Assembly: GCF_003925875.1 (NCBI RefSeq)
Contig: NZ_AP019309.1
Coordinates: 2,790,001-2,854,000 of the forward strand
Origin: Intestinibaculum porci
GTDB lineage: Bacteria; Bacillota_I; Bacilli_A; Erysipelotrichales; Coprobacillaceae
DNA length: 64,000 nucleotides
Direction: 5' to 3'
Position numbers and translations under genes: made by a program
Shown here: positions 42,488 through 57,134 of the stretch, one piece after another
How positions within the stretch are numbered: the stretch's first letter is position 1
Layout: each line of letters begins with the position of its first letter
Notes under the pieces: generated by a model
Databases searched by the model: none
Seen by the model: only the letters and a program-made list of their open reading frames with translations
What the model was told of the DNA's origin: nothing

Positions 42488-42549
42488 GTAATTTTTCCTT
42501 TCTTTCTCATTAAAAGATGCGTATATTATAGCATATAAGGAGTGATATT

Positions 42550-43368
42550 ATGAAACTATATGAAGAAAGCATGCCCGCTTCCATCGGTAATGCCATCTAT
42601 CAGTATGGTGATAATTCTATTACCAAAATTATTCAGTACTTAGAAGTCGATGATGAGCATGGTTATATCTTAACCCCTGATGCTTTTTATTATGCCTTTA
42701 AAACCAAGGGTTCCTTCTTGTTAAAGGATTTAACTGACGTGATGATTCGCAAAGTCCGCCATCAGGAAAAAGAATTGATTTTAGTCGTCCATGGCATTCA
42801 TCATATGTTCTATGCACATGACTTTGATTTTGGCGATTTATTAGACGCTTTAGAAGATCAAAAAGCCTTCACAATTACTTATCCGATGGCTTTAGATGAC
42901 CGCATTCTCTATTTAATTGATGTCATTCTTCATGATATCGATGATGATGTCTATGAAGATACGACGCTCAATGACTTACAGAAAGAGCAGCTCAACAGTT
43001 ATTTAGAAACAGTAAAAAATGCGGAAAGCCTCGATGATACCCATTTCCATATTGAGATGGAATTACTCGTCGATCATGTCATGGATCTATGCAATGCACT
43101 AGAACTCGATAGTGAAGAAATTGATGCATTAGCGCAGGCTCAGGAAGAAATGAATCAACAGGAAGATCAGATGTTTGATTCATTCAAAGATATGTATGCC
43201 CAAAACAAAGATAAAATCAAAGATGTAACCGGCATCGATATGGATGATCTGCAAAACAAATCACCAGAAGAACTCAATAGTATGGTTGATGATCTTTGCA
43301 CCCGTTTCAACATTTCCAAAGATCAGTTGACAGAGTTAGCCAGCCGTTTTGCATCAAAACACAAATAA
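42550..43368 (+). CDS. Acidic hypothetical protein
   Basis: A 272-residue soluble, strongly acidic protein. Residues about 1-110 look like a compact beta-rich domain (HGYILTPDAFYYAFKT, ILVVHGIHHMFYA), possibly a bacterial PH-like fold; the rest is helical and charged, with DQMFDSFKDMYAQNKDKI. No family is recognised. AAGGAG precedes the ATG. It is divergent from prsW and has a terminator after it. Confidence 0.65.
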   Translation: MKLYEESMPASIGNAIYQYGDNSITKIIQYLEVDDEHGYILTPDAFYYAFKTKGSFLLKDLTDVMIRKVRHQEKELILVVHGIHHMFYAHDFDFGDLLDALEDQKAFTITYPMALDDRILYLIDVILHDIDDDVYEDTTLNDLQKEQLNSYLETVKNAESLDDTHFHIEMELLVDHVMDLCNALELDSEEIDALAQAQEEMNQQEDQMFDSFKDMYAQNKDKIKDVTGIDMDDLQNKSPEELNSMVDDLCTRFNISKDQLTELASRFASKHK

Positions 43369-43389
43369 GCGCCTAAGCGCTTATTTTTT
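43364..43389. terminator. Bidirectional terminator
   Basis: Stem ATAAGCGC / GCGCTTAT with loop CTAA and a T run; it also supplies the A run for the convergent LysR gene. Confidence 0.85.
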
Positions 43390-44301
43390 TGTAAACAAAG
43401 TATTCACAATGGCAATATATTGTTTGCCTAATTCAGAAAGCTGATGATCTTTTCCTAAGATATAACCAATTTGCATATTCTGGTTGGGATGTTCCGGATC
43501 TTCCTGGAAAGGAATAATGACATTTTCTTTCCCATTGAGATCTTCCTCAATAATTGATGAGCATAAAGTATAGCCATGAAGAGCATGCATGAAATTTAAC
43601 ATGGTAGCGCGATCATTGACTTTAATCGTCCGCGGATAGTGATGATCACTGAGAATTTCTTCCGCTAAGAAAGCGGAATCTGTTTCCCCCTGTTCAAAAG
43701 AAAGACATGGATAAGGTAAAAGCTCGTCAAAGGTAAGCGTCTGATGATGAGCTAAAGGATGATCACTCGCTAAATAGACATGAGCCCGGCATTCATAAAG
43801 GGCGTGGAACTGGACATTATAATCATCAAATAATCGTTTCAGAACTTTCTTATTGTACTTAGACAAAAAGAGAATGCCGATATCACTGCGATGACTCGCC
43901 ACATCTTTAATCACTTCTTTGGTCTGCGTTTCCCGAAAGGCAAAATCATAATTAAGCGTATCATAACTTGATACCAGCTTTTCAAAAGCGCGCACCGCAA
44001 AGGTGTAATGTTGCGTCGAAACGGCAAATTTTGTTTTCAGCTGCCGTTTTCCGCCATAAGCATACTTCAGATTCTCATACTGAGAATATAACTCCTGCGC
44101 CTGGGTCAGGAAGGTGCTGCCTTCCCGAGTGAGAATAACCCCTTTTGAGGTTCTTTCAAAAATTCTAATCCCAATCTCTTCTTCGAGATCTTTGATCGCA
44201 TTGGTTAAGGTCGGCTGAGAAATATAGAGATTTTCAGCGGTTTTATTCATCGAGCCATTTTCTGCCACCTTTAAGGCATAATAGATTTGTGTGAGTTTCA
44301 T
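43381..44301 (-). CDS. LysR-type regulator downstream of the sulfur cluster (CysB/CysL-like candidate)
   Basis: A 306-residue regulator from ATG 44301, after GGAGGGG. The winged helix (MKLTQIYYALKVAENGSMNK, ENLYISQPTLTNAIKDLEEE) and the substrate domain from about residue 90 are typical. It lies directly downstream of the sulfur assimilation genes on the same strand, behind their terminator. LysR proteins commonly control cysteine and methionine genes, so it is the prime candidate to control this cluster. Confidence 0.85.
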   Translation of the reverse strand: MKLTQIYYALKVAENGSMNKTAENLYISQPTLTNAIKDLEEEIGIRIFERTSKGVILTREGSTFLTQAQELYSQYENLKYAYGGKRQLKTKFAVSTQHYTFAVRAFEKLVSSYDTLNYDFAFRETQTKEVIKDVASHRSDIGILFLSKYNKKVLKRLFDDYNVQFHALYECRAHVYLASDHPLAHHQTLTFDELLPYPCLSFEQGETDSAFLAEEILSDHHYPRTIKVNDRATMLNFMHALHGYTLCSSIIEEDLNGKENVIIPFQEDPEHPNQNMQIGYILGKDHQLSELGKQYIAIVNTLFTKK

Positions 44302-44353
44302 CACGATCCCCTCCTTTTGAACATCATAGCGAACTTCTATTAACCTATCAATA

Positions 44354-44366
44354 CTATTTATAATAG
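44354..44366. promoter_or_regulatory. Palindrome in the LysR promoter region
   Basis: CTATT-TAT-AATAG, a perfect inverted repeat about 55 bases upstream of the LysR start. It could be the regulator's own site; it fits an AT-rich LysR-type box only loosely. Confidence 0.35.
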
Positions 44367-44380
44367 GGTTTATAATAAAC

Positions 44381-44415
44381 AAAAAGAAAAGACATGCCGG
44401 GAAAAGCATGCCTTC
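44381..44415 (-). terminator. Terminator of the sulfur operon after tusA
   Basis: Minus-strand stem AAGGCATGC / GCATGTCTT (one G-T pair) with loop TTTTCCCG, followed by TTCTTTTTG. Confidence 0.7.
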
Positions 44416-44545
44416 TGATGTCCATTATTATTATGACATCTTTGTTTACATTTTAGGGATAGGGAAATTTTATATGTTTGCTTATTGTCAGTCTCCTGAC
44501 AAAATTACTATACGTAAGTTTTATGAATGGGATATGAACTTTTTG

Positions 44546-44791
44546 TTAATCTTCAACCTTACGGACAATCAAATCATAAGTTCCATCTTCATTGTTAATG
44601 AGCTTTAAGATCTGATGCCCTTCATCTTTAATACTGCGAGGGACATTCTGAACGGGTTCTCCATCGTTCATATGAACGGATAAAACCTGACCATCATCTA
44701 ATTCTTCTAAAGCAACTTTCGCTTTCACAAAAGTAACGGGACAGACAACATCAGTAATGTCGACTGTTTCATCAATTTTAATATCAGCCAT
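44546..44791 (-). CDS. TusA-family sulfur carrier
   Basis: An 81-residue protein with the TusA/SirA signature DVVCPVTFVKAKVALEELDD, where the Cys at about residue 17 carries persulfide sulfur. It is the last gene of the sulfate-to-homocysteine cluster and overlaps the sulfite reductase gene by 8 bases. It may carry sulfide-level sulfur from the reductase to the thiocarboxylate carrier. Confidence 0.88.
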   Translation of the reverse strand: MADIKIDETVDITDVVCPVTFVKAKVALEELDDGQVLSVHMNDGEPVQNVPRSIKDEGHQILKLINNEDGTYDLIVRKVED

Positions 44792-45644
44792 TGTATGCCT
44801 CCTTTAATGCTTTTTCTAAGCTGTCTTTGCCAACGCGCTGGATTGTAAAATAGAAACGTTCACTTGGTTTGGCATTGTCTTTAAACCAGTTAATGCAGGC
44901 ATCGCAGACTCTTAATAAAGTATCATGATCTTTAATAAAAGGAACCATCGGTTCACCTTTGGTAATGGTATTGCCAAAGAGACCGCCAAAGCTTAACATG
45001 TAGCCCTGCTCTCCTGCATAAGCTGAAGTTGGACAGGCAAAGAAGCAGCGACCGCAGTTATTACATTTCTCATAATCTACCGTGATCTTGCCATCTTCTA
45101 AAGTAATGGCCCCTTTACGGCAGGCTTTTACACAGACCCCACACGAAATGCAGTCTTCTTCCTTCCAGGTCACCTGGATGCCGCCTTTAATACCTAAATC
45201 ATTTTCTTCGGCTTTTAAACAGTTATTCTGACAGCCTGTTACCCCAAATTTAAACTTATGAGGCAGCTCTTTCCCAAAATAACGTTCCGCCAGTTCTTTA
45301 GCGATCGGCTGCGTCGCAATACAGCCATTAGGACAGGTTTCATTGCCCTGACAAGCTGTAATCGTACGCACACGCGGACCACAGACACCATTTCGGGCCC
45401 CGCCTTTGGCTAATGTTTCCTTAACGGCTTCAATATCTTTCAACTGAATAAAAGGAATTTCAATACCTTGACGGCTGGTTAAATGAATATAGCCGTGACC
45501 ATAAGTATTGGCCACTTCCATAATGGCAGCTAATTCTTTGGCAGAGACCTGACCACCGGTTGTGGCCAAACGCATTGAGAAACAGTTTTTCTGTTTCTGA
45601 CGCATAAATCCTCCTGCTTTTAATTCACTATAGTTAACGGCCAT
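44784..45644 (-). CDS. Siroheme sulfite/nitrite reductase with two ferredoxin clusters (AsrC-like)
   Basis: A 286-residue protein from ATG 45644, 7 bases after GGAGG. Residues 1-70 match the N-terminal half-domain (GGFMRQKQKNCFSMRLATTG, THLTSRQG-like). The siroheme-[4Fe-4S] cysteines follow the pattern C-x5-C (CQGNETC) and C-x3-C (CQNNC). An inserted ferredoxin part has CISCGVCVKAC and CNNCGRCFFAC. This is the short clostridial layout like AsrC. Expected reaction: sulfite to sulfide. The gene lies between a JAMM protease and tusA. Confidence 0.88.
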   Translation of the reverse strand: MAVNYSELKAGGFMRQKQKNCFSMRLATTGGQVSAKELAAIMEVANTYGHGYIHLTSRQGIEIPFIQLKDIEAVKETLAKGGARNGVCGPRVRTITACQGNETCPNGCIATQPIAKELAERYFGKELPHKFKFGVTGCQNNCLKAEENDLGIKGGIQVTWKEEDCISCGVCVKACRKGAITLEDGKITVDYEKCNNCGRCFFACPTSAYAGEQGYMLSFGGLFGNTITKGEPMVPFIKDHDTLLRVCDACINWFKDNAKPSERFYFTIQRVGKDSLEKALKEAYNG

Positions 45645-45657
45645 AATCATTCCTCCC

Positions 45658-46068
45658 TTAAATAATATTTAAATCTTCTTTTGTAGACTGACCATTTTCT
45701 ACATGGAATGAATGAAGAACAGGTTCTTCGTTCATTAATGATAAAATCAAATAACTCGCTGATGAATCATAGGCCAAACGGATATCTTCCTGTGATGAAC
45801 GGGAAGGTGATTCCGGATGTGAATGCCAGTTGCCAAGCGGCTTTAAACCATTCTGGCGCATATTCTTAATGGCCTCTAGCTGCGCTTTTGGGGTAATGGT
45901 AAAGTGCTCATTGGTATGATCGACATTTTCAATCAGATACACTTTTTCAATAACCCGGACGCCGTCTTCATCATGACCGGCAATTAAGCCGCACGCTTCT
46001 TCTGGCAAATTGGCCTTAGCGTGGGCAACCATCTTGTCATAATCAGCTTTTTTGAGTAAGACTTTCAT
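45658..46068 (-). CDS. JAMM/MPN metalloprotease (HcyD/Mec-like)
   Basis: A 136-residue JAB1/MPN-domain zinc protease. The motif is complete: Glu in LPEEACGLIAG, and HSHPESPSRSSQED as HxH-x7-S-x2-D. In Wolinella HcyD removes a C-terminal residue from the carrier HcyS to expose Gly-Gly; in Mycobacterium Mec frees cysteine from CysO. Here it sits between the activating enzyme and sulfite reductase, and the carrier ends in Gly-Gly-Gly-Cys, so trimming that Cys is a likely task. Confidence 0.85.
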   Translation of the reverse strand: MKVLLKKADYDKMVAHAKANLPEEACGLIAGHDEDGVRVIEKVYLIENVDHTNEHFTITPKAQLEAIKNMRQNGLKPLGNWHSHPESPSRSSQEDIRLAYDSSASYLILSLMNEEPVLHSFHVENGQSTKEDLNII

Positions 46069-46069
46069 C

Positions 46070-46885
46070 TTAATGCCCCGCTTTCAAATCACAGGCAGCC
46101 TGTTCATAATCAATTAATTTGGTAATTGTTGGATGATCACTGCAAACCGCGCAGCCTTTTCCTCTTGACGGTAATTTAATCGTATGAAATTCCATCTTTA
46201 ACGCATCATATGTTAATAGTTTGCCAACTAACAATTCACCGACACCAGTAATATACTTGATCGCTTCCATCGCCTGCAGGCTGCCGATCACGCCGCCCAT
46301 CGCCCCGATGACGCCTGCCTGTTTACAAGTTGGCACAGCATCTTTTGGTGGGGGTGATTTGAAGACACAGCGGTAACATGGACCTTCCCCCGGTACGACC
46401 GTCATTAACTGACCTTTAAAGCGGATAATACCGGCATGTGAGAAAGGCTTTTTCGCCATCACGCAAGCATCATTAATAAGGAACTTAGCTGGGAAGTTGT
46501 CGGTTCCATCTAAGATAAAATCATAATCCTTGATAATATCCATGATGTTATAAGATGTCATATATTCTTTATAAGTAATGACATTGACGTCAGGGTTAAT
46601 GGCCTGCATCGTTTCTTTAGCACTTTCGACTTTGTCTTTACCAATATCGGCAGTCGTATGGATGACCTGTCTTTGCAGATTGGAGAGATCCACCACATCG
46701 GCATCGACAATACCGATGGTACCAACACCCGCGGCAGCCAGATAGAGGGCAGCTGGTGCCCCCAGACCCCCGGCGCCAATGATCAGCACTTTCGCATTGA
46801 GCAGTTTTTTCTGCCCCTTCACACCGATTTCTTTGAGGATGATGTGACGGGAATAACGCTCCAATTGTTCGTTTGTAAAACCCAC
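46070..46885 (-). CDS. ThiF/MoeB/HesA-family carrier-adenylating enzyme (HcyF-like)
   Basis: A 271-residue E1-like enzyme: ATP loop IIGAGGLGAPAAL (about residue 34), DxVDLSNLQRQ, DGTDNF, zinc cysteines in CYRC and CAVC, and the Cys in VPTCKQAGVIG used in thiocarboxylate transfer. It should adenylate the C terminus of the carrier encoded just upstream. The start is GTG 46885, 7 bases after the GGAGGAGG that forms the last codons of the carrier gene, so the pair is tightly coupled. Confidence 0.9.
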   Translation of the reverse strand: MGFTNEQLERYSRHIILKEIGVKGQKKLLNAKVLIIGAGGLGAPAALYLAAAGVGTIGIVDADVVDLSNLQRQVIHTTADIGKDKVESAKETMQAINPDVNVITYKEYMTSYNIMDIIKDYDFILDGTDNFPAKFLINDACVMAKKPFSHAGIIRFKGQLMTVVPGEGPCYRCVFKSPPPKDAVPTCKQAGVIGAMGGVIGSLQAMEAIKYITGVGELLVGKLLTYDALKMEFHTIKLPSRGKGCAVCSDHPTITKLIDYEQAACDLKAGH

Positions 46886-47092
46886 TTAGCATCCTCCTCC
46901 CATGAAATATAAGAATTCCACTTCATCTCCATCTTTTAAAATTGTGGTATCAAAATTTTCCTGGTCAATAAATTCTTCATTGACAGAAACAGTCACATAT
47001 AAAGGCATTTCAACCTTTTCCTCTTCTAATAATGAAGTAATATTTAAACCATCCTGATATTCTTTCTTTTCTCCAGATACGGTAATTTTCAT
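46886..47092 (-). CDS. ThiS/MoaD-like sulfur carrier ending in Gly-Gly-Gly-Cys (HcyS-like)
   Basis: A 68-residue ubiquitin-fold protein (MKITVSGEKKEYQDGLNITS, ILKDGDEVEFLYFMGGGC). Ordinary ThiS and MoaD end in Gly-Gly, whose carboxylate becomes a thiocarboxylate. Here a genomically encoded Cys follows three Gly. In the Wolinella homocysteine pathway the carrier carries an extra residue after Gly-Gly that a JAMM protease removes; the neighbours here (MetY, E1-like enzyme, JAMM protease, sulfite reductase) are the same set. The triple-Gly codons also serve as the ribosome site of the next gene. Confidence 0.88.
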   Translation of the reverse strand: MKITVSGEKKEYQDGLNITSLLEEEKVEMPLYVTVSVNEEFIDQENFDTTILKDGDEVEFLYFMGGGC

Positions 47093-47095
47093 TGT

Positions 47096-48295
47096 TTATT
47101 CTCCTTTGATCGCCTGATCGAAATCAGCCTTTAAATCTTCAATATCTTCAATCCCTACCGACACGCGAATAGTGCCTGGGTAAACGCCGGCACGTTCCTG
47201 CTCTTTGATTGTGTTATGCACGGCAATGGTACTAGCCGGATGGACTACTAAAGTTTTCACATCACCGATATTAGACACAATATGTGCCAGTTTTAAGCGA
47301 TTAATAACCTGAAAAGCTTTTTCTTTATCGCCGACATCGCATGTTAATAAGCCGCCGCCATGACCATTTAATAAAGCGGTTAACGGGTCGTGTAAAGCGG
47401 GATAATTCACTTTAACGCCTAAGCTTTCTAAATGCTTAGCTAGGGCTAAGGCATTTTCACAGATGCGCTGCATGCGTAAACCTAATGTCTCTAAACCTAA
47501 GACATTGAGATAGGCATTCTGCGGGCTTAGACAGGCCCCGATGTTTTGTGATAAATCATCACGCAGACGCATGTAATAGGCCATCTTTTTGTATTTGCCA
47601 TAAGCCTGTAAAGAAGGATACTGAGCGATATCCCAGGGAAAACGGCCCCCATCAATGATGACGCCGCTAATGGCATTAGAGGTGCCATTAATATACTTTG
47701 ATGAGGAATGAATGACCACATCAGCGCCATGCTTTAAGGGCTGAATCAGATACGGCGTCGCAGCCGTATTATCGACAAAAAGCGGTAAGCCATGATCATG
47801 GGCGATGCTGCTCACTTTTTCCACATCTAAGATCTCTAATGATGGATTACTTAACATTTCCCCAAAGATCACTTTAGTATGAGCGTTGATTGTGCTTTCT
47901 AAAACAGCTGCATCATTTAAAGAAATGAAATGCGTGGTAATGCCATAATGGGCTAAATCCTTAAACAGTTCGATTGTGCCGCCATAAAGATTCCAGCCGG
48001 CGATAATTTCATCACCAGGCTGACAGATATTCAGGAAGGCTAAGGATAAAGCCGCCATCCCCGAGCTGCAGGCTAAGGCGCCGCGTCCGCCTTCAATGGC
48101 ATTGATTTGACTTTCAAAAGCGGTAATTGTCGGATTGCCAATGCGGGTATAGGCATAACCCATCTTCTTATGGGCAAAGACTTTTTCCTGATCTTCCGCA
48201 CTTTCAAATGTGAAAGCACTGCTTTGGACAATTGGAGGCAGAGTGGATTTCATGACACTTTCTCCCCCGTGTACTAATTGTGTATTAAATTTCAT
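47096..48295 (-). CDS. metY: O-acetylhomoserine sulfhydrylase (MetY type), PLP-dependent
   Basis: A 399-residue Cys/Met-metabolism PLP enzyme. It has TQLVHGGE at the start, YAYTRIGNPT, SSGMAALSL, the PLP lysine in HSSSKYINGTSNAISG (about residue 202) and TIRVSVGIEDIEDL near the end. It makes homocysteine from O-acetyl- (or succinyl-) homoserine and a sulfur donor; in this setting the donor is probably the carrier thiocarboxylate encoded next, 3 bases downstream. AAAGGAGG precedes the ATG. A 92-base gap separates it from cysN. Confidence 0.9.
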   Translation of the reverse strand: MKFNTQLVHGGESVMKSTLPPIVQSSAFTFESAEDQEKVFAHKKMGYAYTRIGNPTITAFESQINAIEGGRGALACSSGMAALSLAFLNICQPGDEIIAGWNLYGGTIELFKDLAHYGITTHFISLNDAAVLESTINAHTKVIFGEMLSNPSLEILDVEKVSSIAHDHGLPLFVDNTAATPYLIQPLKHGADVVIHSSSKYINGTSNAISGVIIDGGRFPWDIAQYPSLQAYGKYKKMAYYMRLRDDLSQNIGACLSPQNAYLNVLGLETLGLRMQRICENALALAKHLESLGVKVNYPALHDPLTALLNGHGGGLLTCDVGDKEKAFQVINRLKLAHIVSNIGDVKTLVVHPASTIAVHNTIKEQERAGVYPGTIRVSVGIEDIEDLKADFDQAIKGE

Positions 48296-48387
48296 GTCTG
48301 CCTCCTTTCGCCTCCATTATACATTACCTACTAAACTAGCGTATATATAGATTTATAAGAACGTGTTATAAGATTTTTTTAGAACGC
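48296..48387 (-). promoter_or_regulatory. Internal promoter region ahead of metY
   Basis: This is the only gap of size within the sulfur cluster. The minus strand has TATAAT about 24 bases before the metY start, with only a poor -35 (TATACG at 18 bases), as is common at activator-dependent promoters. The symmetric CTAGTTTAG lies just upstream and could bind a regulator. Confidence 0.5.
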
Positions 48388-50007
48388 TTAAATATAATCT
48401 TTAAATTCACTGAGATCTTTTGATAACACCGTTAAATTCTTAAGCAGTGAGACAACGTCCTCTTCACTTAAAGCTTGATCATTGAAACTATTGAAATAGT
48501 TATCTACATGTAAGTTTGCCTCCTGCTTGGCATCTAAATAAACTAAGACAATGATACCCGCCGCATTGAGATGTTTGATCACTGTATTCACATCTTCATC
48601 AGCCTTAGGCTGATAAAGATACGTATGACGACCATAACGATATAATTCTCGTTCGATATACTGAACTGCTTCTAATGAGTAAACCTCTTTTCTTAGTCCG
48701 ACATTAATCACTTTCTGACCATTTAAAGAGGCGCGTGCATCATCATCAATGATAGCCTCACGATTGTCATCGATCACGCCATTAACAACCCCGCAGGCAC
48801 TTGTCATATTAGTAATACGGTCAATGAGAATAAATTCTCCCATGGTCTTATGGACATCAAAATCATCTAGGACGATATCATCGGTTAAGCTGACTTCAAT
48901 TTCCGCTATTTCATTTTTGTGTAAAACATCCGCTTGATGTTTTTCCCCCGTGTTGACATCAATCAGATGATCGATCGCCGTCACCGTTCCAGGAATCAGC
49001 TTTGTGCCTAACTTGACAAAGAATGGCTTCTGATTGGTTAAAGGTTCCTGATCCATCCATAAGATGGTGCCTTTGAATGCATGCGTCACTCTTAATGTCG
49101 TATCTTTAACGAGAACGCAGCCACGCGATACATCGACTTCTTTATCTAAAGTGATCGTGACCGGATCGCCTAAAGAGGCGATATCTGATGCGCGATCACC
49201 AATAAAGATCTGTTTGACATGGGCTTTTTCCCCGCTTGGTAAAATGGTTAAAGGATCACCAACACGAATATGTCCGGCTTCAATCTGCCCCTGGAAACCA
49301 CGGAATGTATGATCAGGACGACTCACGCGCTGCACTGGCATGTAGAAGCCTTCTTCCTGCGCTTCATCATCAACATCAACTATTTCTAAAAATGGTAAGA
49401 GCGCCTGTCCATGATACCAAGGCGTATGATCCGATAATGTGGTGACATTATCTCCAGCCGTGGCACTTAACGGAATAATGGTGACATTCTCTAAGTGTAA
49501 TTCTTCTTTTAAATCTGCAATTTGGGCACTGATTTCATCAAAACGTTCCTGCGCATAATCCACTAAGTCCATCTTATTGACTGCGAAGACAAAGTGACGA
49601 ATCCCCATCAACGCACAGATGCGGGCATGACGTTTGGTCTGGATTAATACGCCGGCGCTCGCATCAATCAAAATCACCGCTAAAGACGCAAAGGAAGCTC
49701 CTACCGCCATGTTGCGGGTATATTCTTCATGACCTGGTGTATCAGCAACGATGAAGGAACGATGATCAGTCGTAAAGTAACGATAAGCGACATCGATCGT
49801 GATCCCCTGTTCACGCTCTTCCGTTAAGCCATCTAAAAGAAGAGAATAATCAATGGCGCCGCCGCGGCTGCCAACTTTCGAATCTAATTCTAACGCTTTC
49901 TCCTGATCGGCATAGATGAGCTTTGAATCATAAAGAATATGACCAATTAATGTCGATTTGCCATCATCAACCGAACCACAGGTAATAAATTTAAGTAATC
50001 CTTTCAT
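48388..50007 (-). CDS. cysN: Sulfate adenylyltransferase subunit 1 with decayed C-terminal APS-kinase domain
   Basis: A 539-residue GTPase subunit of ATP sulfurylase. G motifs GSVDDGKSTLIG (residue 10), DTPGHEEYTRNM and NKMDLVDY are intact, followed by EF-Tu-like beta domains to about residue 420. The last 110 residues align with APS kinase of CysNC fusions: YIERELYRYGRHTYLYQP against ALEKRLHEAGRHTYLLDG, and LNAAGIIVLVYLDA. The kinase P-loop (GLSGSGKST) is missing, replaced by VINVGLRKEVYS. It should make APS but not PAPS. It overlaps cysD by one base. Confidence 0.9.
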   Translation of the reverse strand: MKGLLKFITCGSVDDGKSTLIGHILYDSKLIYADQEKALELDSKVGSRGGAIDYSLLLDGLTEEREQGITIDVAYRYFTTDHRSFIVADTPGHEEYTRNMAVGASFASLAVILIDASAGVLIQTKRHARICALMGIRHFVFAVNKMDLVDYAQERFDEISAQIADLKEELHLENVTIIPLSATAGDNVTTLSDHTPWYHGQALLPFLEIVDVDDEAQEEGFYMPVQRVSRPDHTFRGFQGQIEAGHIRVGDPLTILPSGEKAHVKQIFIGDRASDIASLGDPVTITLDKEVDVSRGCVLVKDTTLRVTHAFKGTILWMDQEPLTNQKPFFVKLGTKLIPGTVTAIDHLIDVNTGEKHQADVLHKNEIAEIEVSLTDDIVLDDFDVHKTMGEFILIDRITNMTSACGVVNGVIDDNREAIIDDDARASLNGQKVINVGLRKEVYSLEAVQYIERELYRYGRHTYLYQPKADEDVNTVIKHLNAAGIIVLVYLDAKQEANLHVDNYFNSFNDQALSEEDVVSLLKNLTVLSKDLSEFKDYI

Positions 50008-50903
50008 TAGAAATAACCTTCTTTCTTACGTCTTTCCATTGAGCCGCTTTCCTCATGATCGATAACACGGCTGGTACGTTCACTTTCGACCGCACTTAAT
50101 GTTTCTTCAATAATTTCATCTAGCGTCTCGGCATTACTTTCAATGGCCCCCGTTAATGGGTAACAGCCTAAAGTTCTGAAACGCACTTTCTTCATCTCAA
50201 TCTTTTCCCCTGGACGCAGCTTCAGACGATCATCATCCACCATGATGAGGTTGCCGTCTCTTTCAATAACTGGACGCTGCTTGGCGAAGTATAATGGTAC
50301 AATTTCAATGTTTTCACGTTTGATATACTGCCAGATATCCTTTTCTGTCCAGTTGGAAATTGGGAAGACACGCATACTTTCGCCTTTATGAATGCGGGTG
50401 TTGTACAGTTTCCACATTTCCGGACGCTGGTTTTTTGGATCCCAGGCTTGGGCTTCATTACGGAACGAGAAGATACGTTCCTTGGCACGTGATTTTTCTT
50501 CATCACGACGCCCGCCGCCAAAGGCTGCCGTAAAACCATATTTCTTTAAAGCCTGTTTGAGCGCCTGGGTTTTCATAATGTCGGTATACGATGAACCGTA
50601 ATCAAACGGATTGACACCGGCTTTAACGCCTTCCTGATTGGTGTAGGCGATCATTTCAATGCCTAACTCTTTAGCGATACGATCACGGAATGCAATCATT
50701 TCGTGAAATTTCCAGGTCGTATCGACATGCAAGAATGGAAAAGGCGGTTTTTCTGGATAGAATGCTTTTAATGCCAGGTGCAGCATCACTGAACTGTCTT
50801 TCCCAATCGAATAAAGCATCACCGGATTCTCGCATTCCGCCGCTACTTCTCGAATAATATATATAGCCTCAGCTTCTAAGGCATCTAAGTGCGATTGACT
50901 CAT
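50007..50903 (-). CDS. cysD: Sulfate adenylyltransferase subunit 2
   Basis: A 298-residue PP-loop ATP pyrophosphatase with [18 protein letters not shown] (about residue 31), [30 protein letters not shown] and the C-terminal [20 protein letters not shown]. With CysN it activates sulfate to adenosine 5'-phosphosulfate. It follows the aprBA pair and overlaps cysN, so activation and reduction genes are in one operon. Confidence 0.95.
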
Positions 50904-50914
50904 GATGATTCCTC

Positions 50915-51214
50915 CTAATATTGATTTGATTCTTTCTTATTGATCGTGATCGTCTGGTCTTTAAAGCGCCAGTAGGCATGATCCCCTTTTTCTTCATAAT
51001 GCAGCGTGCCGCCGCGGCCGCCGATATCAGCACCGAGGAAAAAGGCGATCGCATCAAAATGACAAGCCTTTAAACAAGACGTACAGCCCCAGCAGTCACG
51101 GACACGATCAATATGCGCCTTGCCGTCTTCTTTGATTTTAATCAGATTGCCAGGGCAGGCTTCCACGCAGCCCTTGCAGCCGACACATTTTTCATCATTG
51201 ATTTTAATGCTCAT
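50915..51214 (-). CDS. aprB: AprB-like ferredoxin subunit of adenylylsulfate reductase
   Basis: A 99-residue protein with two [4Fe-4S] binding motifs, [14 protein letters not shown] (residue 10) and [11 protein letters not shown] (about 41), and a C-terminal extension with [16 protein letters not shown]. It resembles AprB, the electron-transfer subunit of APS reductase, shorter than the dissimilatory form. It overlaps aprA by 11 bases and lies just before cysD. Confidence 0.85.
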
Positions 51215-52850
51215 AAGACCCTCCTAGCTTACGTTTGATGATCGTGATGTCCCCATCGCGATAAACGGAATTGATAAAGACATCGTAATCGTGAGAAACA
51301 TCTGGATAATCTTTATTTTCCGCAAAGCTATGCCATCTTGTCTCTTTCCGCGCCGCTAAGTGAGCGATCACTGAGAGGCAGACAACCAAACGTTCTTTTA
51401 ATTCATATATTCTTAATAAGTCATCCGTATTTTTGGCGACTAACTGATCAGATAGCGGAATCAGTTCCTGGATATGGGCTTTCGCTAACGTAAGTGACGC
51501 TTCATTATACTGATAGTAACTGCCAATCCCACCAGCATACTGATCCATGATCTTCTGCATCGTTTCTTCTAAATCATCGACGCTAAATAACGCTTCTTGA
51601 TTGGTAAAGAAATGTTCGTATTCCTGATCATCAAAAGAGACATGCAAAGGCAAAGATAATGAGGATAAATCCTGCAGGATGGTCTCCGCCGCGATCTCTC
51701 CTTCCGCTAAGCCGCCGGTGACATATTTCTGTGGCGCGCCGCCGGCTACATCCCCAGCCGCGTAGAGCCCTGTAAGCGTGGTGCGACGCTTATTATCAAT
51801 CCAGTAGCCGCTAGCGGTATGACCGCCGACAATATAAGGTTCGGTGCCTTGAATTTCCACGTTCCGCTTGCTTGGGCCAATGCCCGCTTCTAACCATTTC
51901 AGCGTCTGACTTGGCGCCATGTTGAGGTAAGCCTTATAGAGATCTTCTTCCGCTTCCGAAGAAATCCCCTTTGTCCCCAGGTAACAAGGGCCGCGTCCTT
52001 CCAAAGTTTCATTCACCGTGCCATAAAGACGCTGAGAGGTTGTTAAACCATACTTCGTTTCATAGATTTCGCCTTTACTGTTTAACTGTTTCGCGCCAAC
52101 GCCCTGCGCAATCGTCCCCGTAGGAGCGATCGTATCTTTACAGCGTAAAGCAATAAAACGCATTTCGAAGGTCGTCATCTCGGCGCCATTGAGAATCCCC
52201 ATCGCATAACCGGCACCGGTATTAAATGGCGGATACCACATCTTATGACGAGAGAAGCCAGGATTATTGGGACGATAGAGGCCGCTCGCTCCGCCGGTCG
52301 CAATCAACGTCGCTTTGGCTTTGATGACATAGGCTTTCTTTTCATTAACATCAAAGCCATAAGCGCCCTTTACAGCCCCATCTTCCATCAGATAATTGGT
52401 AATATTGACATGATTGATAACTTTGATATGCGGATCTTTCACCATCGAAGCGAGGATCGGTTTGATGTTTTCCCCATTAATTTTGATATTCCGATTTCCT
52501 CTTGTGACATAGTCGCCATTTTCATCTTTCAAAATGACTAAACCATGATCTTCTAATTCCTTAACCGTCTGATTGACCCGTTCACACATCGATAACAGTA
52601 AGTCTTCCCGCGCGATGCCATGGGCATCTTTCATCGCATAATCGACATAGAATTGGGGATCATGCCTTTTGGTGATATAACAGTTAATCGCATTGACGCC
52701 GGCAGCTAAACAGCCAGAGCGTTTGATGTTGGCCTTTTCGGCGATGATCACCTGGACATCGGACTTTTTCGCTAACGTATACGCCGCATAGCAGCCGGCC
52801 GTGCCGCCGCCGATAATGAGTACATCGGTTTCTAATATTTCTCTTTCCAT
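51204..52850 (-). CDS. aprA: AprA-like adenylylsulfate (APS) reductase flavoprotein subunit
   Basis: A 548-residue FAD protein of the fumarate-reductase/AprA family: FAD loop VLIIGGGTAGCYAAY, AEKANIKRSGCLAAGVNAIN, LIATGGASGLYRPNN, FEMRFIALRCKDT, GGHTASGYWID and LYAAGDVAGGAPQKYV. The RSGCLAAGVNAIN and GLYRPNN stretches point to AprA, not succinate dehydrogenase. It reduces APS to sulfite and AMP. The enzyme is usually linked to dissimilatory sulfate reduction; here it lies among importer, activation and methionine genes, implying an assimilatory role. Confidence 0.88.
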   Translation of the reverse strand: MEREILETDVLIIGGGTAGCYAAYTLAKKSDVQVIIAEKANIKRSGCLAAGVNAINCYITKRHDPQFYVDYAMKDAHGIAREDLLLSMCERVNQTVKELEDHGLVILKDENGDYVTRGNRNIKINGENIKPILASMVKDPHIKVINHVNITNYLMEDGAVKGAYGFDVNEKKAYVIKAKATLIATGGASGLYRPNNPGFSRHKMWYPPFNTGAGYAMGILNGAEMTTFEMRFIALRCKDTIAPTGTIAQGVGAKQLNSKGEIYETKYGLTTSQRLYGTVNETLEGRGPCYLGTKGISSEAEEDLYKAYLNMAPSQTLKWLEAGIGPSKRNVEIQGTEPYIVGGHTASGYWIDNKRRTTLTGLYAAGDVAGGAPQKYVTGGLAEGEIAAETILQDLSSLSLPLHVSFDDQEYEHFFTNQEALFSVDDLEETMQKIMDQYAGGIGSYYQYNEASLTLAKAHIQELIPLSDQLVAKNTDDLLRIYELKERLVVCLSVIAHLAARKETRWHSFAENKDYPDVSHDYDVFINSVYRDGDITIIKRKLGGSYEH

Positions 52851-52859
52851 AAACTCCTC

Positions 52860-53930
52860 CTAAATAACAACGGATTCATCTGTCGTGATATTCGGATTAC
52901 AGATGACTTGTAAGGTATTATGTTCACCATAGACAAACAGACGATAAATAAGCACTTTCACCGCTTCACCGACTTCTAACATCGCCTCTTCGACCTGTCT
53001 GGTGCCGGTGATCTCCTGCCCTTTAACCGTAATGGTATATTCAATCTCTTTTCCTCTAAATAACCGTTTCTTGACGATCCCGTCTTCCACAGCATTGATA
53101 TATTTGATGTATTCCCCCGCTTTATAGATCGCTATATTTTCACTGCGCAAAACCGCCTGATGGGCCTTTAAATCTTCAAAGCCTTTGAAGCGGCCCGGCT
53201 GATGAATGCGGTTAGGATGCCCGATAAATTCCACTACGAAACTGCTTTCTGGCTGTTTATAAATAGCGATCGGACTGCCTTTTTGTTCAATCCGGCCATG
53301 ATTGGTAACGATAATTTCATCAGCCACTTCAATCGCTTCTTCCTGATCATGCGTCACAAAGATACTCGTAATTCCGACTTTGCGAATCATCTCTTTAAGC
53401 CAGGTTCGCAGTTCAATACGGACTTTCGCATCGATCGCCGCAAACGGTTCATCGAGTAAAAGCAATTCTGGATTGGGGGCTAAAGCGCGGGCAAAAGCGA
53501 CACGCTGACGCTGTCCGCCGGAAAGCTCATAAGGATAACGATTGCCGAGCCCTTCTAAGTTCACGAGTTTTAATAACTCCTGCACCCGCTCATCGATCTC
53601 TTTGCGTTTCCACTTAGCCACCTTTAAGCCAAAAGCGATATTGTCATAGACAGTCATATAGCGAAAGAGCGCATAGTTCTGAAAGACAAAGCCAATCCCG
53701 CGCTTGGCAGCGGGGATATCATTGACTTTCTTGCCATCAATGAGAATCTCTCCGCTATCGGCATTCTCTAAACCGGCAATCATTCTCAGGATCGTGGTTT
53801 TCCCGGATCCTGAAGGACCTAATAATGCAATCAGCTGTCCTTTCTGAATAGAAAAGGAAATATCATCACTGGCTTTATAATCGTTATACATTTTATTGAT
53901 ATGACGTAATTCAACATAGCTTTGATCCAT
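52860..53930 (-). CDS. cysA: Sulfate/thiosulfate ABC transporter ATP-binding protein
   Basis: A 356-residue ATPase with Walker A LLGPSGSGKTTILR, Q-loop FVFQNYALF, signature YELSGGQRQRVAFARAL, Walker B LLLLDEPFAAID and a C-terminal regulatory extension from about residue 235. FVVEFIGHPNRIH is typical of CysA. It works with the two permeases and binding protein encoded just upstream. Confidence 0.93.
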   Translation of the reverse strand: MDQSYVELRHINKMYNDYKASDDISFSIQKGQLIALLGPSGSGKTTILRMIAGLENADSGEILIDGKKVNDIPAAKRGIGFVFQNYALFRYMTVYDNIAFGLKVAKWKRKEIDERVQELLKLVNLEGLGNRYPYELSGGQRQRVAFARALAPNPELLLLDEPFAAIDAKVRIELRTWLKEMIRKVGITSIFVTHDQEEAIEVADEIIVTNHGRIEQKGSPIAIYKQPESSFVVEFIGHPNRIHQPGRFKGFEDLKAHQAVLRSENIAIYKAGEYIKYINAVEDGIVKKRLFRGKEIEYTITVKGQEITGTRQVEEAMLEVGEAVKVLIYRLFVYGEHNTLQVICNPNITTDESVVI

Positions 53931-54734
53931 TTAGAGATCCCCCTTTCGCAGCGCAATCAGCTGCCTGAAAAATAACATGATGAGGGCCATAAAGACGAGC
54001 ACGCTTGATAAAGCAAAGGCGCCAACGAAATCATACCCCTGATATAAGAATTCGATATATAAAGGCATCGTCATCGTCTTGCCAAGCAAATGACCGGAAA
54101 TAATTGAGACCGCGCCAAATTCTCCCATCGCTCTGGCCATCGTTAAAACGATGCCATAAAGAAGCAGTCCTTTCACCTGTGGGTAGGTGATCTTCTTAAA
54201 GATCGTCCAGGCGCTTGCGCCCATCAAAGCAGCGGCTTCTTCTTCATCAGTGCCGCGCGTATTTAAGACAGGGATGATTTCCCTTGAGACAAAAGGAAAG
54301 GTCACGAAAATTGTGACTAACACAATCCCTAAAGGAGCAAACATTACTTCTAAATTAAGCTTCTCCAATAGCGAATAAAGAATACTCTGACGCCCATACG
54401 TCAGGACATAGACAAGTCCGCCAACAACAGGTGAAATCGTTAATGGTAAATCAATGAGTGCTGAGATGACTCGTTTGCCTTTAAATTGATAACGCGTTAG
54501 TAAGTTAGAGGCGAGCAAACCGAAGAGCGTATTAACGAGGACACAGATGACAGACACGACTAATGTCAGCACAATGGCATCGATCGCATAAGTCGTGAAG
54601 ACGGCCTGCGAAAAGGTTTTCCAGCCTTTTGAAAAAGCGGTCCCCAGGCAATAAAGCAAGGGCAATATCAGCATGAAAAAGACAAAGAGATACGTTATCA
54701 AAATAAGTATTTTTGCGGTTTTAGATTTTTTCAT
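53931..54734 (-). CDS. cysW: Sulfate ABC transporter permease
   Basis: A 267-residue permease with six membrane segments and the EAA loop EEEAAALMGASAWTIFKKIT about residue 162. LPLTISPVVGGLVYVLTYG and ARAMGEFGAVSIISGHLLGKT are characteristic of CysW. Its stop adjoins the cysA start and it begins 12 bases after cysT. Confidence 0.93.
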   Translation of the reverse strand: MKKSKTAKILILITYLFVFFMLILPLLYCLGTAFSKGWKTFSQAVFTTYAIDAIVLTLVVSVICVLVNTLFGLLASNLLTRYQFKGKRVISALIDLPLTISPVVGGLVYVLTYGRQSILYSLLEKLNLEVMFAPLGIVLVTIFVTFPFVSREIIPVLNTRGTDEEEAAALMGASAWTIFKKITYPQVKGLLLYGIVLTMARAMGEFGAVSIISGHLLGKTMTMPLYIEFLYQGYDFVGAFALSSVLVFMALIMLFFRQLIALRKGDL

Positions 54735-54746
54735 AAGCGCACCTCC

Positions 54747-55574
54747 TTAAATCGTTGCTTTGACGCTTTCTTTTGACTGTATAAAAGCATTTAAGAATAA
54801 AATGAGAAATGACATGGCTAACATGACTAACGCAATCGCTGTAGCACTAGCATAATCGAATGACTGCAGTTTACTCATCACGAGAATCGCGGTGATTTCG
54901 GTTTTAAAGGGCTGATTGCCGGCGATAAAGACAACCGCGCCATATTCCCCGATACCGCGGGCAAAGCTCATGGTCACGCCGCTGACTAAAGCAGGAAAGA
55001 TTTCTGGTAAAAGAACATGGCGAAAGGTATAGCCTTCATCCGCTCCCAGCATTTCCGCCGCTTCCTCATAGGCATGATCAATCTTTTCTAAAACTGGCTG
55101 CAGGGTTCTCACGACAAAGGGAAAACCGACAAAGATTAAGGCAACGATCATCCCTAAGCGGGTATATGCAATCTTAATTCCAAAAAGACCGGCAAACTGT
55201 CCGACGATCCCATGCCTGCTTGTCAGATAAGCTAAGGAAATTCCCGCCACCGCCGTCGGTAAGGCAAAGGGCAATTCAATGACGCTATTGACGAAGCTTT
55301 TAAAAGGAAAGTCATAACGGACTAACACCCAGGCGACGATCAAGCCCATCACCCCATTGACCAGGGCGGCGATCAAAGCTGTTTCTAAAGTTACGCCGTA
55401 ACTAGCCATCACCCGCGCATCCGTCACAATCTTCACAAATTCAGAAAAACTGATGTGTGAGGTGTAGATGATAATCGAACACAAGGGCATTAACACAACC
55501 AAGCTTAACATGATTATGGTGAGGGAAAAATTCACCCCAAAGCCAGGAATGACACGTTTATTTGTAGATTTCAT
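54747..55574 (-). CDS. cysT: Sulfate ABC transporter permease
   Basis: A 275-residue permease from ATG 55574, 7 bases after GGGGG. Six membrane segments, ELPFALPTAVAGISLAYLTS and the EAA loop YEEAAEMLGADEGYTFRHVL, followed by SFARGIGEYGAVVFIAGN, match CysT/CysU. The start lies 17 bases inside the end of the binding-protein gene, so the two are coupled. Confidence 0.93.
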   Translation of the reverse strand: MKSTNKRVIPGFGVNFSLTIIMLSLVVLMPLCSIIIYTSHISFSEFVKIVTDARVMASYGVTLETALIAALVNGVMGLIVAWVLVRYDFPFKSFVNSVIELPFALPTAVAGISLAYLTSRHGIVGQFAGLFGIKIAYTRLGMIVALIFVGFPFVVRTLQPVLEKIDHAYEEAAEMLGADEGYTFRHVLLPEIFPALVSGVTMSFARGIGEYGAVVFIAGNQPFKTEITAILVMSKLQSFDYASATAIALVMLAMSFLILFLNAFIQSKESVKATI

Positions 55575-56589
55575 CAAAATACCCCCCATCCTGAAAATGG
55601 ACTTTCGTTGCTTTTGCCCAGCCGCCAAAATGCTCAATCGTTGTCATCGAAAGATCATCGACAATCCAGCATTTCGTTAATTTTTTAATGGTATGGCTTT
55701 GATGCGTCGCGCGCTGCTTTTGATAAATCGTTTGATTCACCGGACGATAATAATTTTGCGCAATCAGACGCTGCGCCGAGGCACTATAAAGATGTTTGAT
55801 ATAGACATTAGCCACCTTGCGCGTGCCTTTTTCTTTAACAACTTCATCGACTAACGCCACTGTTGGCTGACATAAAATACTGGCGCTAGGAATAATCATT
55901 TCATAATCCCCAGGATTTTCTTTCATCGTTAAATAGGCTTCATTTTCCCAGGTTATCAAAACATCCCCTTCACCGTTTTCACAGAAAGTGGTTGTGGAAG
56001 CCCTTGAGCCAGAATCTAAGACCAACACGTTATGATACAAAGCTTTCATCTGTTTTTTGATCTGCGTCACCCTTAACCCTTGTTTTTCAAACGCATACCA
56101 GGCTGCCAGATAGTTCCAGCGGGCCCCGCCGCTCGTTTTCGGATTAGGGGTAATGACACCGACATTCTTTTTCGTTAAGTCCTGCCAGTCATGAATCTTT
56201 TTGGGATTGCCTTTTCTTACTAAAAAGACGATCGTTGATGTATAAGGTGCTGACTGATGCGGATAATGGTGCATATATCCTTGTTTGATTAAGCCGCTTT
56301 TCATGAGCGTATCCACATCACTTTGAACCGCTAAGGAGACAACATCACCTTTAAGACCATTATCGACTTCTAAGGCCTGTTTACCGCTGCCGCCATGGGA
56401 CTGCACCACGGTTACAGCCTGGTGATACGTTTTCTGATAATAGTGGATAAACTGCTTATTATATGCACTGTATAATTCTCTTGTCGGATCATAGGAGACA
56501 TTAGTGATCGACAATTTTTGCGTTTTCTGACAGCCGCTTAAGCTTGCCATCATCACAAAGCAGGTAACGATATATTTCAAGAATTTCAT
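55558..56589 (-). CDS. sbp: Sulfate-binding lipoprotein
   Basis: A 343-residue binding protein from ATG 56589, 8 bases after AAGGAG. It has a lipoprotein signal with lipobox ASLSGC (Cys about 20) and the Sbp/CysP features NVSYDPTRELY, QSHGGSGKQA, NPKTSGGARWNYLAAW, LDSGSRASTTTF and GEGDVLITWENEA. It is the first gene of the sulfate operon. The promoter region upstream has a TATCAT-like -10 and no clear -35, which suits activator control. Confidence 0.93.
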   Translation of the reverse strand: MKFLKYIVTCFVMMASLSGCQKTQKLSITNVSYDPTRELYSAYNKQFIHYYQKTYHQAVTVVQSHGGSGKQALEVDNGLKGDVVSLAVQSDVDTLMKSGLIKQGYMHHYPHQSAPYTSTIVFLVRKGNPKKIHDWQDLTKKNVGVITPNPKTSGGARWNYLAAWYAFEKQGLRVTQIKKQMKALYHNVLVLDSGSRASTTTFCENGEGDVLITWENEAYLTMKENPGDYEMIIPSASILCQPTVALVDEVVKEKGTRKVANVYIKHLYSASAQRLIAQNYYRPVNQTIYQKQRATHQSHTIKKLTKCWIVDDLSMTTIEHFGGWAKATKVHFQDGGYFDEIYK

Positions 56590-56664
56590 TGTCTTCACTC
56601 CTTCCTATTTTCCTACTGTTTTATTGTGTTTATGATAGCACAAAAGGAGAATACGGTGTTCTAT

Positions 56665-56711
56665 GAAAAAAAGAGAGCCAGTCATAAAATAATTTTATAA
56701 CTGACTCTCAT
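56665..56711 (-). terminator. Terminator of the 64-residue gene
   Basis: Minus-strand stem of about 17 pairs (GAGAGTCAGTTATAAAA against TTTTATGACTGGCTCTC) with seven T after it. It also insulates the sulfur operon from upstream transcription. Confidence 0.88.
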
Positions 56712-56736
56712 TACCTCATAAATTGTCGACGCTTCA

Positions 56737-56931
56737 TTATAAATCACTATTCGTGAGTTCTTCGTTTTCGTAAGTTGTTCGCTTTGACTGATCTTTTTTG
56801 ACTTCCCCAGCATCAAACTTTACGACCTTAGGTGTGTCTGAAGATGTATCAAATAAATTGACGCCTAAAGACCATTCTTCTAATTCTTTTTCTTTAGTAT
56901 CTTCATCTTTTGCTTTTACTTTAATAGCCAT
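56737..56931 (-). CDS. Small charged hypothetical protein
   Basis: A 64-residue hydrophilic protein rich in Lys, Glu and Asp (VKAKDEDTKEKELEEWSLGV), probably partly disordered. GAGAGGGG lies upstream of the ATG and a strong terminator follows, so it looks like a real single-gene unit. No family is recognised. Confidence 0.55.
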   Translation of the reverse strand: MAIKVKAKDEDTKEKELEEWSLGVNLFDTSSDTPKVVKFDAGEVKKDQSKRTTYENEELTNSDL

Positions 56932-57000
56932 ATGATTTCACCCCTCTCATCAATATTATACATAAGAGCTAATATCTTTCAAAGAAATTCTCTATTTAAA

Positions 57001-57029
57001 TTGAATATTAGTATCAAGGATGTTATAAT
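57001..57029 (+). promoter_or_regulatory. tRNA promoter
   Basis: TTGAAT, 17 bases, TATAAT, ending 20 bases before the tRNA. Confidence 0.8.
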
Positions 57030-57048
57030 AACTTAGCACTTGAAAAAA

Positions 57049-57123: not shown

Positions 57124-57134
57124 CCACTTGTTTA

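What the first reader, a model, noticed from the sequence alone, without database searches (positions are those of the whole stretch)
44546..48295. Protein-thiocarboxylate homocysteine module with a carrier ending in Gly-Gly-Gly-Cys
Six adjacent genes encode MetY, a ThiS-like carrier, a ThiF/MoeB-like activating enzyme, a JAMM protease, a siroheme reductase and TusA. This is the gene set of the Wolinella HcyS/HcyF/HcyD pathway, in which a JAMM protease trims a residue after Gly-Gly before sulfur loading. Here the extra residue is Cys. That invites two models: the Cys is a removable cap, or the encoded Gly-Cys end mimics the CysO-cysteine adduct that Mec cleaves in mycobacteria.
Basis: partly seen in the sequence, partly recalled or inferred. 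Interest (0 to 1): 0.85.

Follow-up and report, generated by a model that had tools for sequence, protein, structure and literature searches.

The report
Capped sulfur carrier for homocysteine synthesis
A bacterium carries a known set of genes that loads sulfur made from sulfate onto a small carrier protein to build homocysteine, and the carrier's odd last amino acid (cysteine) is best read as a removable cap of the kind that related carriers also carry, often with a different residue.

Summary
The six genes are present as described, at the end of a sulfate-assimilation cluster (transporter, AprAB, CysDN, MetY, carrier, E1, JAMM, sulfite reductase, TusA). It is operon class 4e of Iyer 2006 and fits the Wolinella HcyS/HcyF/HcyD pathway (recalled; paper not held). 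The carrier ends FLYFMGGG-C. Of relatives with a JAMM in the same stretch, 81 of 81 carry something after MGGG (one only a fourth Gly): C, R, Q, H, AR, QL, SVR, up to carrier-E1 fusions. All 43 bare ends found lie in stretches with no JAMM or close E1 (presumed thiamine type). So Cys is one removable cap among many; the nearest E1 relatives have Arg, and a Cys-capped carrier with a needed JAMM gene is in print (PtmS3, PMC6006322). The genome has no ThiG or MoaE. New here: the E1 start overlaps or abuts the carrier stop in 60 of 68, so cap length mostly follows reading frame at a tight junction; one-residue caps near a JAMM are C/R/Q/H in 33 of 34, and in none of 10 without one nearby. Cleavage, thiocarboxylation and MetY substrate are inferred. 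Ordinary as a system; the cap rule is testable.

The parts
47096..48295 (-). MetY (O-acetylhomoserine sulfhydrylase family, 399 aa), cluster-linked subclass
   Evidence: PF01053 E 1e-104; falls in a 29-row clade of cluster-linked MetY (SH-aLRT 96, quick tree), apart from the genome's second, canonical MetY
46886..47092 (-). HcyS-type ThiS-like sulfur carrier, 68 aa, ends MGGG-C; the only ThiS-family match in the genome
   Evidence: PF02597 and TIGR01683, genome search, C-terminus compared with relatives
46886..46900 (-). Codons of the end: GGA GGA GGA (Gly3), TGC (Cys cap), TAA; the GGAGG run can double as Shine-Dalgarno for the next gene, whose GTG start is 46885-46883
   Evidence: sequence; SD-like run in the Gly codons in 52 of 68 non-fused JAMM-linked carriers
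46070..46885 (-). HcyF-type E1-like adenylyltransferase, 271 aa, no rhodanese domain
   Evidence: PF00899 E 4e-88, the only Pfam family found; Cys170, 173, 187, 245, 248 conserved in at least 83 of 84 rows
45658..46068 (-). HcyD-type JAMM/MPN metalloprotease, 136 aa
   Evidence: PF14464 E 5e-24; invariant E24,H82,H84,S92,D95; model pLDDT 95, fold matches 2kks and Pyrococcus JAMM1
44784..45650 (-). Small siroheme/4Fe-4S sulfite reductase with ferredoxin domain, 288 aa
   Evidence: PF01077, PF03460, Fer4; most of its cysteines conserved in 45-46 rows
44546..44791 (-). TusA-like sulfurtransferase, 81 aa, Cys17 in CP-x-TFVK
   Evidence: PF01206; C17 in 40 of 40 rows
48388..50007 (-). CysN sulfate adenylyltransferase large subunit
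   Evidence: TIGR02034 over cut-off
50007..50903 (-). CysD sulfate adenylyltransferase small subunit
   Evidence: TIGR02039 over cut-off
50915..51214 (-). AprB-like ferredoxin subunit of APS reductase
   Evidence: Fer4 families, position next to AprA
51204..52850 (-). AprA adenylylsulfate reductase alpha
   Evidence: NF005331 over cut-off
52860..56598 (-). Sulfate/thiosulfate-type ABC transporter: ATPase, two permeases, binding protein
   Evidence: ORFs; assigned by reading and by homologous linked genes in L034, L035 and L050; not scanned with Pfam
43381..44409 (-). LysR-family regulator just downstream
   Evidence: NCBIfam LysR hits; LysR matches in 5 of the 42 loci

Best explanation
This is a sulfate-to-homocysteine module of the HcyS/HcyF/HcyD (protein thiocarboxylate) kind. 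Sulfate is imported, activated (CysDN), reduced to sulfite (AprAB) and on to sulfide or persulfide (sulfite reductase, TusA). The carrier is made with a one-residue cap (Cys) after MGGG. The JAMM protein cuts the cap off; the E1-like enzyme adenylates the freed Gly, and sulfur turns it into a thiocarboxylate. MetY joins that sulfur to O-acetylhomoserine, and the JAMM protein frees homocysteine from the carrier. Cap length is mostly a by-product of the tight junction between the carrier and E1 genes. Shown: gene content, intact active sites, a cap that is always there but variable, no ThiG or MoaE client in the genome. Inferred: every catalytic step, the cut site, the sulfur route.
For: Gene set and intact motifs. 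Carrier, E1 and JAMM together in 37 of 42 loci, all six genes in 20. Caps: 71 of 71 unique carriers with a JAMM in the same fetched stretch (adjacent to about 7 kb away), 9 of 9 more (one, L180, ends GGGG and may count as bare), and one fragment (L045, Cys). All 43 bare ends (25, 17, 1) lie in stretches with no JAMM and no close E1 found. Three carrier-E1 fusions (L065/L132, L111, L114), each with a JAMM gene 28-230 nt away, would need a cut after MGGG to free the carrier. Window MetY groups with cluster-linked MetY. No ThiG, no MoaE, one ThiS-family match; a MetA-type acyltransferase could make the acceptor. JAMM model matches Pyrococcus JAMM1 bound to the ubiquitin-like SAMP2 (5lda). PMC6006322 (passages): carriers capped with MV or C; loss of the JAMM gene ptmS1 abolishes the thiocarboxylic products; QbsD cited as a tested cap protease (its in vitro work used carriers cloned without caps).
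Against: No biochemistry. Ten one-residue-capped carriers lie in clusters with E1, SiR, TusA or MetY genes but no JAMM found nearby (8; L186/L209 and L187/L210). Of the eight genomes, two have a JAMM elsewhere (G484, G686), two have no PF14464 match (G465, G524) and four only matches of 21-28 bits in other-sized proteins: a cap can exist without this protease. The genome also has a canonical MetY and a CysK, so homocysteine can probably be made from free sulfide too, and the window's MetY may do the same. Some cluster-linked MetY proteins (L137, L140-L142, L169, L173) fall outside the window's MetY clade. The cap-versus-bare contrast is between two carrier subfamilies, so it is not phylogenetically independent, and the 'thiamine type' of the bare ones is presumed, not checked.
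Confidence: 0.82

Rival explanations
1. The encoded Gly-Cys end is a deliberate mimic of the amide adduct that the JAMM protein cleaves (CysO-Cys, or here carrier-homocysteine), so the cap is chosen by the pocket that also releases the product.
For: One-residue caps with a JAMM in the stretch are C, R, Q or H in 31 of 31, 33 of 34 with later rows (the other is Gly), with at least 11 changes among 30 such rows on the E1 tree; none of 10 one-residue caps without a JAMM nearby has such a residue (N,N,K,I,W,F,L,V; M,I). Longer caps start with A or S in 26 of 40.
Against: The actinobacterial CysO-type carrier in L162 is encoded bare although a JAMM gene is next to it. Subfamily confounding. Two capped carriers (N, K) have a JAMM elsewhere in the genome.
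Confidence: 0.25
2. The cap has no function of its own: it is the codon space needed to place the E1 start at the right distance from a Shine-Dalgarno sequence lying in the Gly codons, tolerated because a JAMM protease is present anyway.
For: The E1 start overlaps or abuts the carrier stop (3 nt or less) in 60 of 68 non-fused JAMM-linked carriers. SD-like run in the Gly codons in 52 of 68.
Against: The eight JAMM-linked carriers without that tight junction (E1 start 12 or 70 nt after the stop in three, no E1 within 240 nt in five) are all capped; in some of these another gene starts close by, so they may be coupled to that one. Four further carriers followed by MetY are capped (junction not analysed). 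Bare ThiS also carry the SD-like run (21 of 25).
Confidence: 0.3
3. The carrier is an ordinary ThiS for thiazole or a MoaD for molybdopterin, and MetY uses free sulfide.
For: TIGR01683 thiS hit over cut-off; a second canonical MetY shows that free-sulfide chemistry is likely present.
Against: No ThiG (the PF05690 hit is a FabK-like protein beside FabH, by reading), no MoaE; cap; operon position.
Confidence: 0.05
4. The terminal Cys is itself the sulfur carrier (a persulfide on Cys), with no cleavage.
For: A thiol at the end of a sulfur carrier is chemically able to hold a persulfide; TusA is present.
Against: Arg, Gln and His replace it in close relatives; E1 and JAMM would have no role.
Confidence: 0.03

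Closest known systems
[quoted passage not shown] not held, known here from citations in other papers and recall)
   Same: Carrier, E1 without rhodanese, JAMM, MetY and sulfate-reduction genes in one cluster; capped carrier (Ala, recalled)
   Different: Cap is Cys; MetY is a separate subclass (the 3ri6 sequence, recalled as the Wolinella enzyme, falls outside its clade)
Operon class 4e of Iyer, Burroughs and Aravind 2006 (PMC1779556, section 12 read, table rows seen in passages)
   Same: ThiS/MoaD-like + JAB + E1 + SirA/TusA + SiR + O-acetylhomoserine sulfhydrylase + sulfate uptake, listed in low-GC Gram-positives
   Different: No cap described in the section and passages that I read
PtmS2/PtmS3 with JAMM PtmS1 (Nat Commun 2018, PMC6006322, passages read) and QbsE/QbsD (QbsD cited there)
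   Same: Carriers capped after GG with MV or a single C; JAMM gene needed in vivo
   Different: Serve thiocarboxylic acid natural products, not homocysteine; partner PtmS4 is a MoaZ homologue
CysO/CysM/Mec cysteine synthesis (actinobacterial type; L162)
   Same: Carrier plus JAMM plus PLP enzyme; product freed by JAMM (recalled)
   Different: L162 carrier is encoded bare (...VAGG), no cap; PLP enzyme is a cysteine synthase

Membership tests
HcyS/HcyF/HcyD homocysteine pathway | Carrier, E1-like enzyme, JAMM and MetY genes adjacent, with sulfate-reduction genes | tested here: met
   all six genes in 20 of 42 related loci
HcyS/HcyF/HcyD homocysteine pathway | Carrier made with residues after the Gly stem | tested here: met
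   MGGG-C; 81 of 81 JAMM-linked carriers (one is only a fourth Gly)
HcyS/HcyF/HcyD homocysteine pathway | Intact JAMM zinc motif E...HxH(x7)SxxD | tested here: met
   E24, H82, H84, S92, D95; model and fold match
HcyS/HcyF/HcyD homocysteine pathway | JAMM removes the terminal residue and frees homocysteine | not testable with these tools
   needs protein
HcyS/HcyF/HcyD homocysteine pathway | MetY uses carrier thiocarboxylate with O-acetylhomoserine | not testable with these tools
   MetY is in a cluster-linked clade; MetA-type acyltransferase present
HcyS/HcyF/HcyD homocysteine pathway | MetY grouping with the Wolinella enzyme | tested here: inconclusive
   3ri6 (identity as Wolinella recalled) has a long branch and groups with L087/L137, not with the window (quick tree)
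CysO/CysM/Mec | Cysteine synthase partner and bare encoded GG | tested here: not met
   Partner is MetY; end is GGGC
Thiamine ThiS | Bare GG end and a ThiG client in the genome | tested here: not met
Molybdopterin MoaD | MoaE in the genome | tested here: not met

The most novel reading that the evidence does not exclude
The cap is a licence. A carrier cannot be loaded until the same JAMM enzyme that must later free homocysteine has cut it, so sulfur is never stranded on a carrier that cannot be unloaded. Clusters that lost the JAMM lost the rule as well, and in some an M20-family metallohydrolase may have taken over the trimming.
Probability: 0.17. Interest if true: 0.6.

Novelty: new member of a known kind. 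Interest (0 to 1): 0.42.

Why it matters
It shows how a ubiquitin-like processing step (a JAMM protease trimming a pro-form before E1 activation) would be used in ordinary sulfate assimilation of anaerobes, where a family model such as TIGR01683 calls the carrier ThiS. The comparative table turns 'why cap a carrier at all' into a set of simple tests: cap identity, cap presence with gene coupling removed, and trimming in clusters without a JAMM.

Tried and rejected
Strict Cys-adduct mimicry: rejected because Arg, Gln and His caps and fusions occur in close relatives. Thiamine or molybdopterin role: rejected. An Rfam riboswitch or T-box near the cluster: none reached threshold in 42000-58000 (only a tRNA at 57049-57123). 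Searching the window's own GTDB family and phylum gave almost nothing: E1 in 2 of 43 genomes, the own one and one match of 38% identity; JAMM in 1 of 392, the own one. Plasmid collection: only distant JAMM proteins, all under 60% identity. My first reading that 12 carriers escape the tight junction was wrong: one search leaves 8. My idea that M20 proteins generally replace the JAMM is weakened: no M20 near L209 and L210, nor in the stretches of G428 and G711.

Carriers were found in 37; of the other five, L045 holds a fragment ending GGGC at the contig edge, L021 looks internally deleted (MetY start joined to E1), L030 is a JAMM with no recognised partner, L046 and L052 end at contig edges. 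L188/L215 (CRGL) could not be classed for JAMM because the contig ends. Near-identical carriers count once (104 unique of 135). One search listed more low-scoring matches than I fetched and its list was itself cut; searches took 40 regions (38 low-scoring). Of the matches only those with loci, and one more fetched, were analysed. JAMM presence was judged within stretches of about 3 to 20 kb. Trees are 'quick' ones without bootstrap. Fisher tests are not corrected for kinship.
Full report
OBSERVATION. The carrier (46886-47092, 68 aa) ends FLYFMGGGC, codons GGA GGA GGA TGC TAA; the E1 gene starts with GTG directly after the stop. The genes are the downstream end of a run that begins with a sulfate-type ABC transporter (52860-56598, assigned by reading and by homologous linked genes in L034, L035 and L050) and continues with AprA, AprB, CysD and CysN; a LysR regulator follows.

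PATHWAY CLASS. Iyer and co-workers (PMC1779556; [quoted passage not shown] They suggested that sulfur from sulfate might end on the carrier. The biochemical work in Wolinella (Krishnamoorthy and Begley 2011) was not held; it is cited for thiocarboxylate-dependent methionine synthesis in PMC6225789 and PMC5764234 (passages). From memory, its carrier ends in an extra Ala that HcyD removes, and HcyD also frees homocysteine.

RELATIVES. Carriers were found in 37, each with E1 and JAMM; all six genes were seen in 20 of 42. Some lack SiR near the JAMM. Carrier searches of 398 genomes of the phylum of L014 and 395 of the phylum of L042 gave more.

CAP TABLE. 'JAMM-linked' means a JAMM profile match over 60 bits in the same fetched stretch, from adjacent to about 7 kb away. 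Of 104 unique carriers, 71 are JAMM-linked and all 71 have at least one residue after MGGG; 33 are not, 25 bare and 8 capped (Fisher p 2e-17, not corrected for kinship). None of the 25 bare ones has a strong E1 or SiR in its stretch; they are presumed thiamine-type ThiS. Above 60 bits to the carrier profile, 65 of 65 in that set have a JAMM and none is bare. The second phylum added 12 carriers above 60 bits, none bare: nine JAMM-linked (G, RQWA, AV, AV, AEVDHTS, ENK, RL, AP, R; the G one, L180, may be read as a bare four-Gly end), two with no JAMM in 11-12 kb (M, I) and one undecided (CRGL). Its 17 lower-scoring ThiS are all bare; one more bare ThiS is L217. A fragment in L045 adds one more Cys cap. 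One-residue caps in the first set: Cys 12, Arg 11, Gln 6, His 2 of 31.

CAP EVOLUTION. On a quick tree of 76 E1 proteins the first cap residue changes at least 38 times (shuffled labels: mean 52, least 46 of 200, so the cap also follows kinship), Cys versus other at least 7 times. The window (Cys) sits with L013, L014 and L024 (all Arg; SH-aLRT 92). Cys is thus not unique to this lineage.

JUNCTION. In 60 of 68 non-fused JAMM-linked carriers an E1 start codon overlaps the carrier gene or lies within 3 nt of its stop. The stretch from the GGG codons to the E1 motif RYSR is 28-38 nt in 58 of 66 junctions, whatever the cap length (Spearman -0.05, p 0.68 over 63 non-fused rows). Many short caps go with TAATG or TGATG; longer caps often run in another frame into the E1 gene; with no stop in frame the two genes are fused (L065/L132, L111, L114). 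The Gly codons carry a Shine-Dalgarno-like run in 52 of 68. This explains much of cap length without chemistry. It does not by itself explain why bare ends are missing: the eight carriers without the tight junction (L034, L050, L130 with a later E1 start; L087, L092, L093, L104, L123 with none within 240 nt) are capped too, though some may be coupled to another gene, and so are four carriers followed by MetY.

RESIDUE RULE. One-residue caps with a JAMM are C/R/Q/H in 31 of 31, or 33 of 34 with the later rows (Gly the exception). Eight one-residue caps without a JAMM in the locus are N, N, K, I, W, F, L, V (Fisher p 2e-8, uncorrected), and two found later are M and I. Longer caps start with A or S in 26 of 40. 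At least 11 changes among 30 one-residue rows stay within the four residues. The codons of the four are linked by single-base steps, and subfamily confounding is real, so this is a lead.

EXCEPTIONS. Of the eight genomes with a capped carrier and no JAMM in the locus, two have a JAMM elsewhere (G686 for L094, G484 for L096), two have no PF14464 match (G465, G524) and four only matches of 21-28 bits in proteins of about 197-264 aa, two of them just over the cut-off (G428, G501; the others G711, G537). In four of the latter six an M20-family gene lies in the cluster or within about 6 kb (L163, L166, L167, L168); a search with one of these M20 proteins at E 1e-10 found it in no other locus and in none of the second-phylum loci, including L209 and L210, which are capped without a JAMM. 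So M20 goes with 4 of 8 such clusters.

THIS GENOME. The carrier is the only ThiS-family match. There is no MoaE, and the ThiG hit is a FabK-like protein beside FabH (by reading). A MetA-type acyltransferase, a CysK and a second, canonical MetY are present. The window's MetY groups with 28 cluster-linked rows, the second one with canonical solved enzymes; other cluster-linked MetY (L137, L140-L142, L169, L173) fall elsewhere. A close E1 is absent from the other 42 genomes of the family except one match of 38% identity and the JAMM from 391 of 392 genomes of the phylum, while Lachnospiraceae copies reach 70% (JAMM) and 88-89% (E1) identity: horizontal gain is likely (inference).

MECHANISM AND STRUCTURE. 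The JAMM active-site residues are invariant. The AlphaFold model (pLDDT 95) matches 2kks, the Desulfitobacterium protein DSY2949, and Pyrococcus JAMM1 with SAMP2. The E1 keeps four paired Cys and Cys187; TusA keeps Cys17. Whether sulfur arrives as sulfide or through TusA persulfide is open; a 2026 paper reports zero-valent sulfur as a product of the assimilatory sulfite reductases that it tested (PMC13188885, abstract and passages).

NOVELTY. A carrier with a one-residue Cys cap, and genetic need for a JAMM gene with capped carriers, are in print (PMC6006322, passages). The module is a new member of a known kind. In the listings and the passages opened from them I saw no account of the cap table, the fixed junction or the C/R/Q/H rule, but the library lacks the key subscription papers, so this is weak evidence of novelty.

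Noticed in passing
L163:9274-10500, L166:5901-7241, L167:5720-7006, L168:8666-9925: M20-family metallohydrolase genes in or near capped-carrier clusters that lack a JAMM (4 of 8 such clusters examined; absent near L209, L210 and in the stretches of G428, G711). Possible replacement trimming enzyme, or a cysteine-related deacylase.
   Followed up: partly
L132:5718-6800, L111:2971-4029, L114:2950-4002: Carrier fused in frame to the E1-like enzyme with a JAMM gene next door: natural polyproteins that would need a cut after MGGG.
   Followed up: partly
L025:8630-8968, L022:8616-8990: A thioredoxin-like protein (CVPCK / CIPCK, by reading) is encoded just before the carrier in the two relatives looked at; the window lacks it at that place.
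   Followed up: no
L014:3193-7893: By reading: a second JAMM, a MoaD/CysO-like domain fused to an E1, and a cysteine desulfurase-like protein lie between MetY and the carrier: two carrier systems in one cluster.
   Followed up: no
L160:5974-8304: Aliarcobacter plasmid CysO-like carrier ends SIAGG-I near a cysteine synthase and a JAMM: a capped carrier in a cysteine-type cluster, with an IS110 transposase gene between JAMM and carrier.
   Followed up: partly
L171:9547 (same as L093): Carrier with a cysteine-rich tail, MGGG-CCQPKCC.
   Followed up: no
window 44546-56598: The cluster looks horizontally gained: near-absent in the window's own family and phylum, close to Lachnospiraceae copies.
   Followed up: partly
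window 46070-46885, residue Cys265: A cysteine near the C-terminus of the E1 protein is conserved in 84 of 84 rows, besides the four paired Cys and Cys187; role unknown.
   Followed up: no
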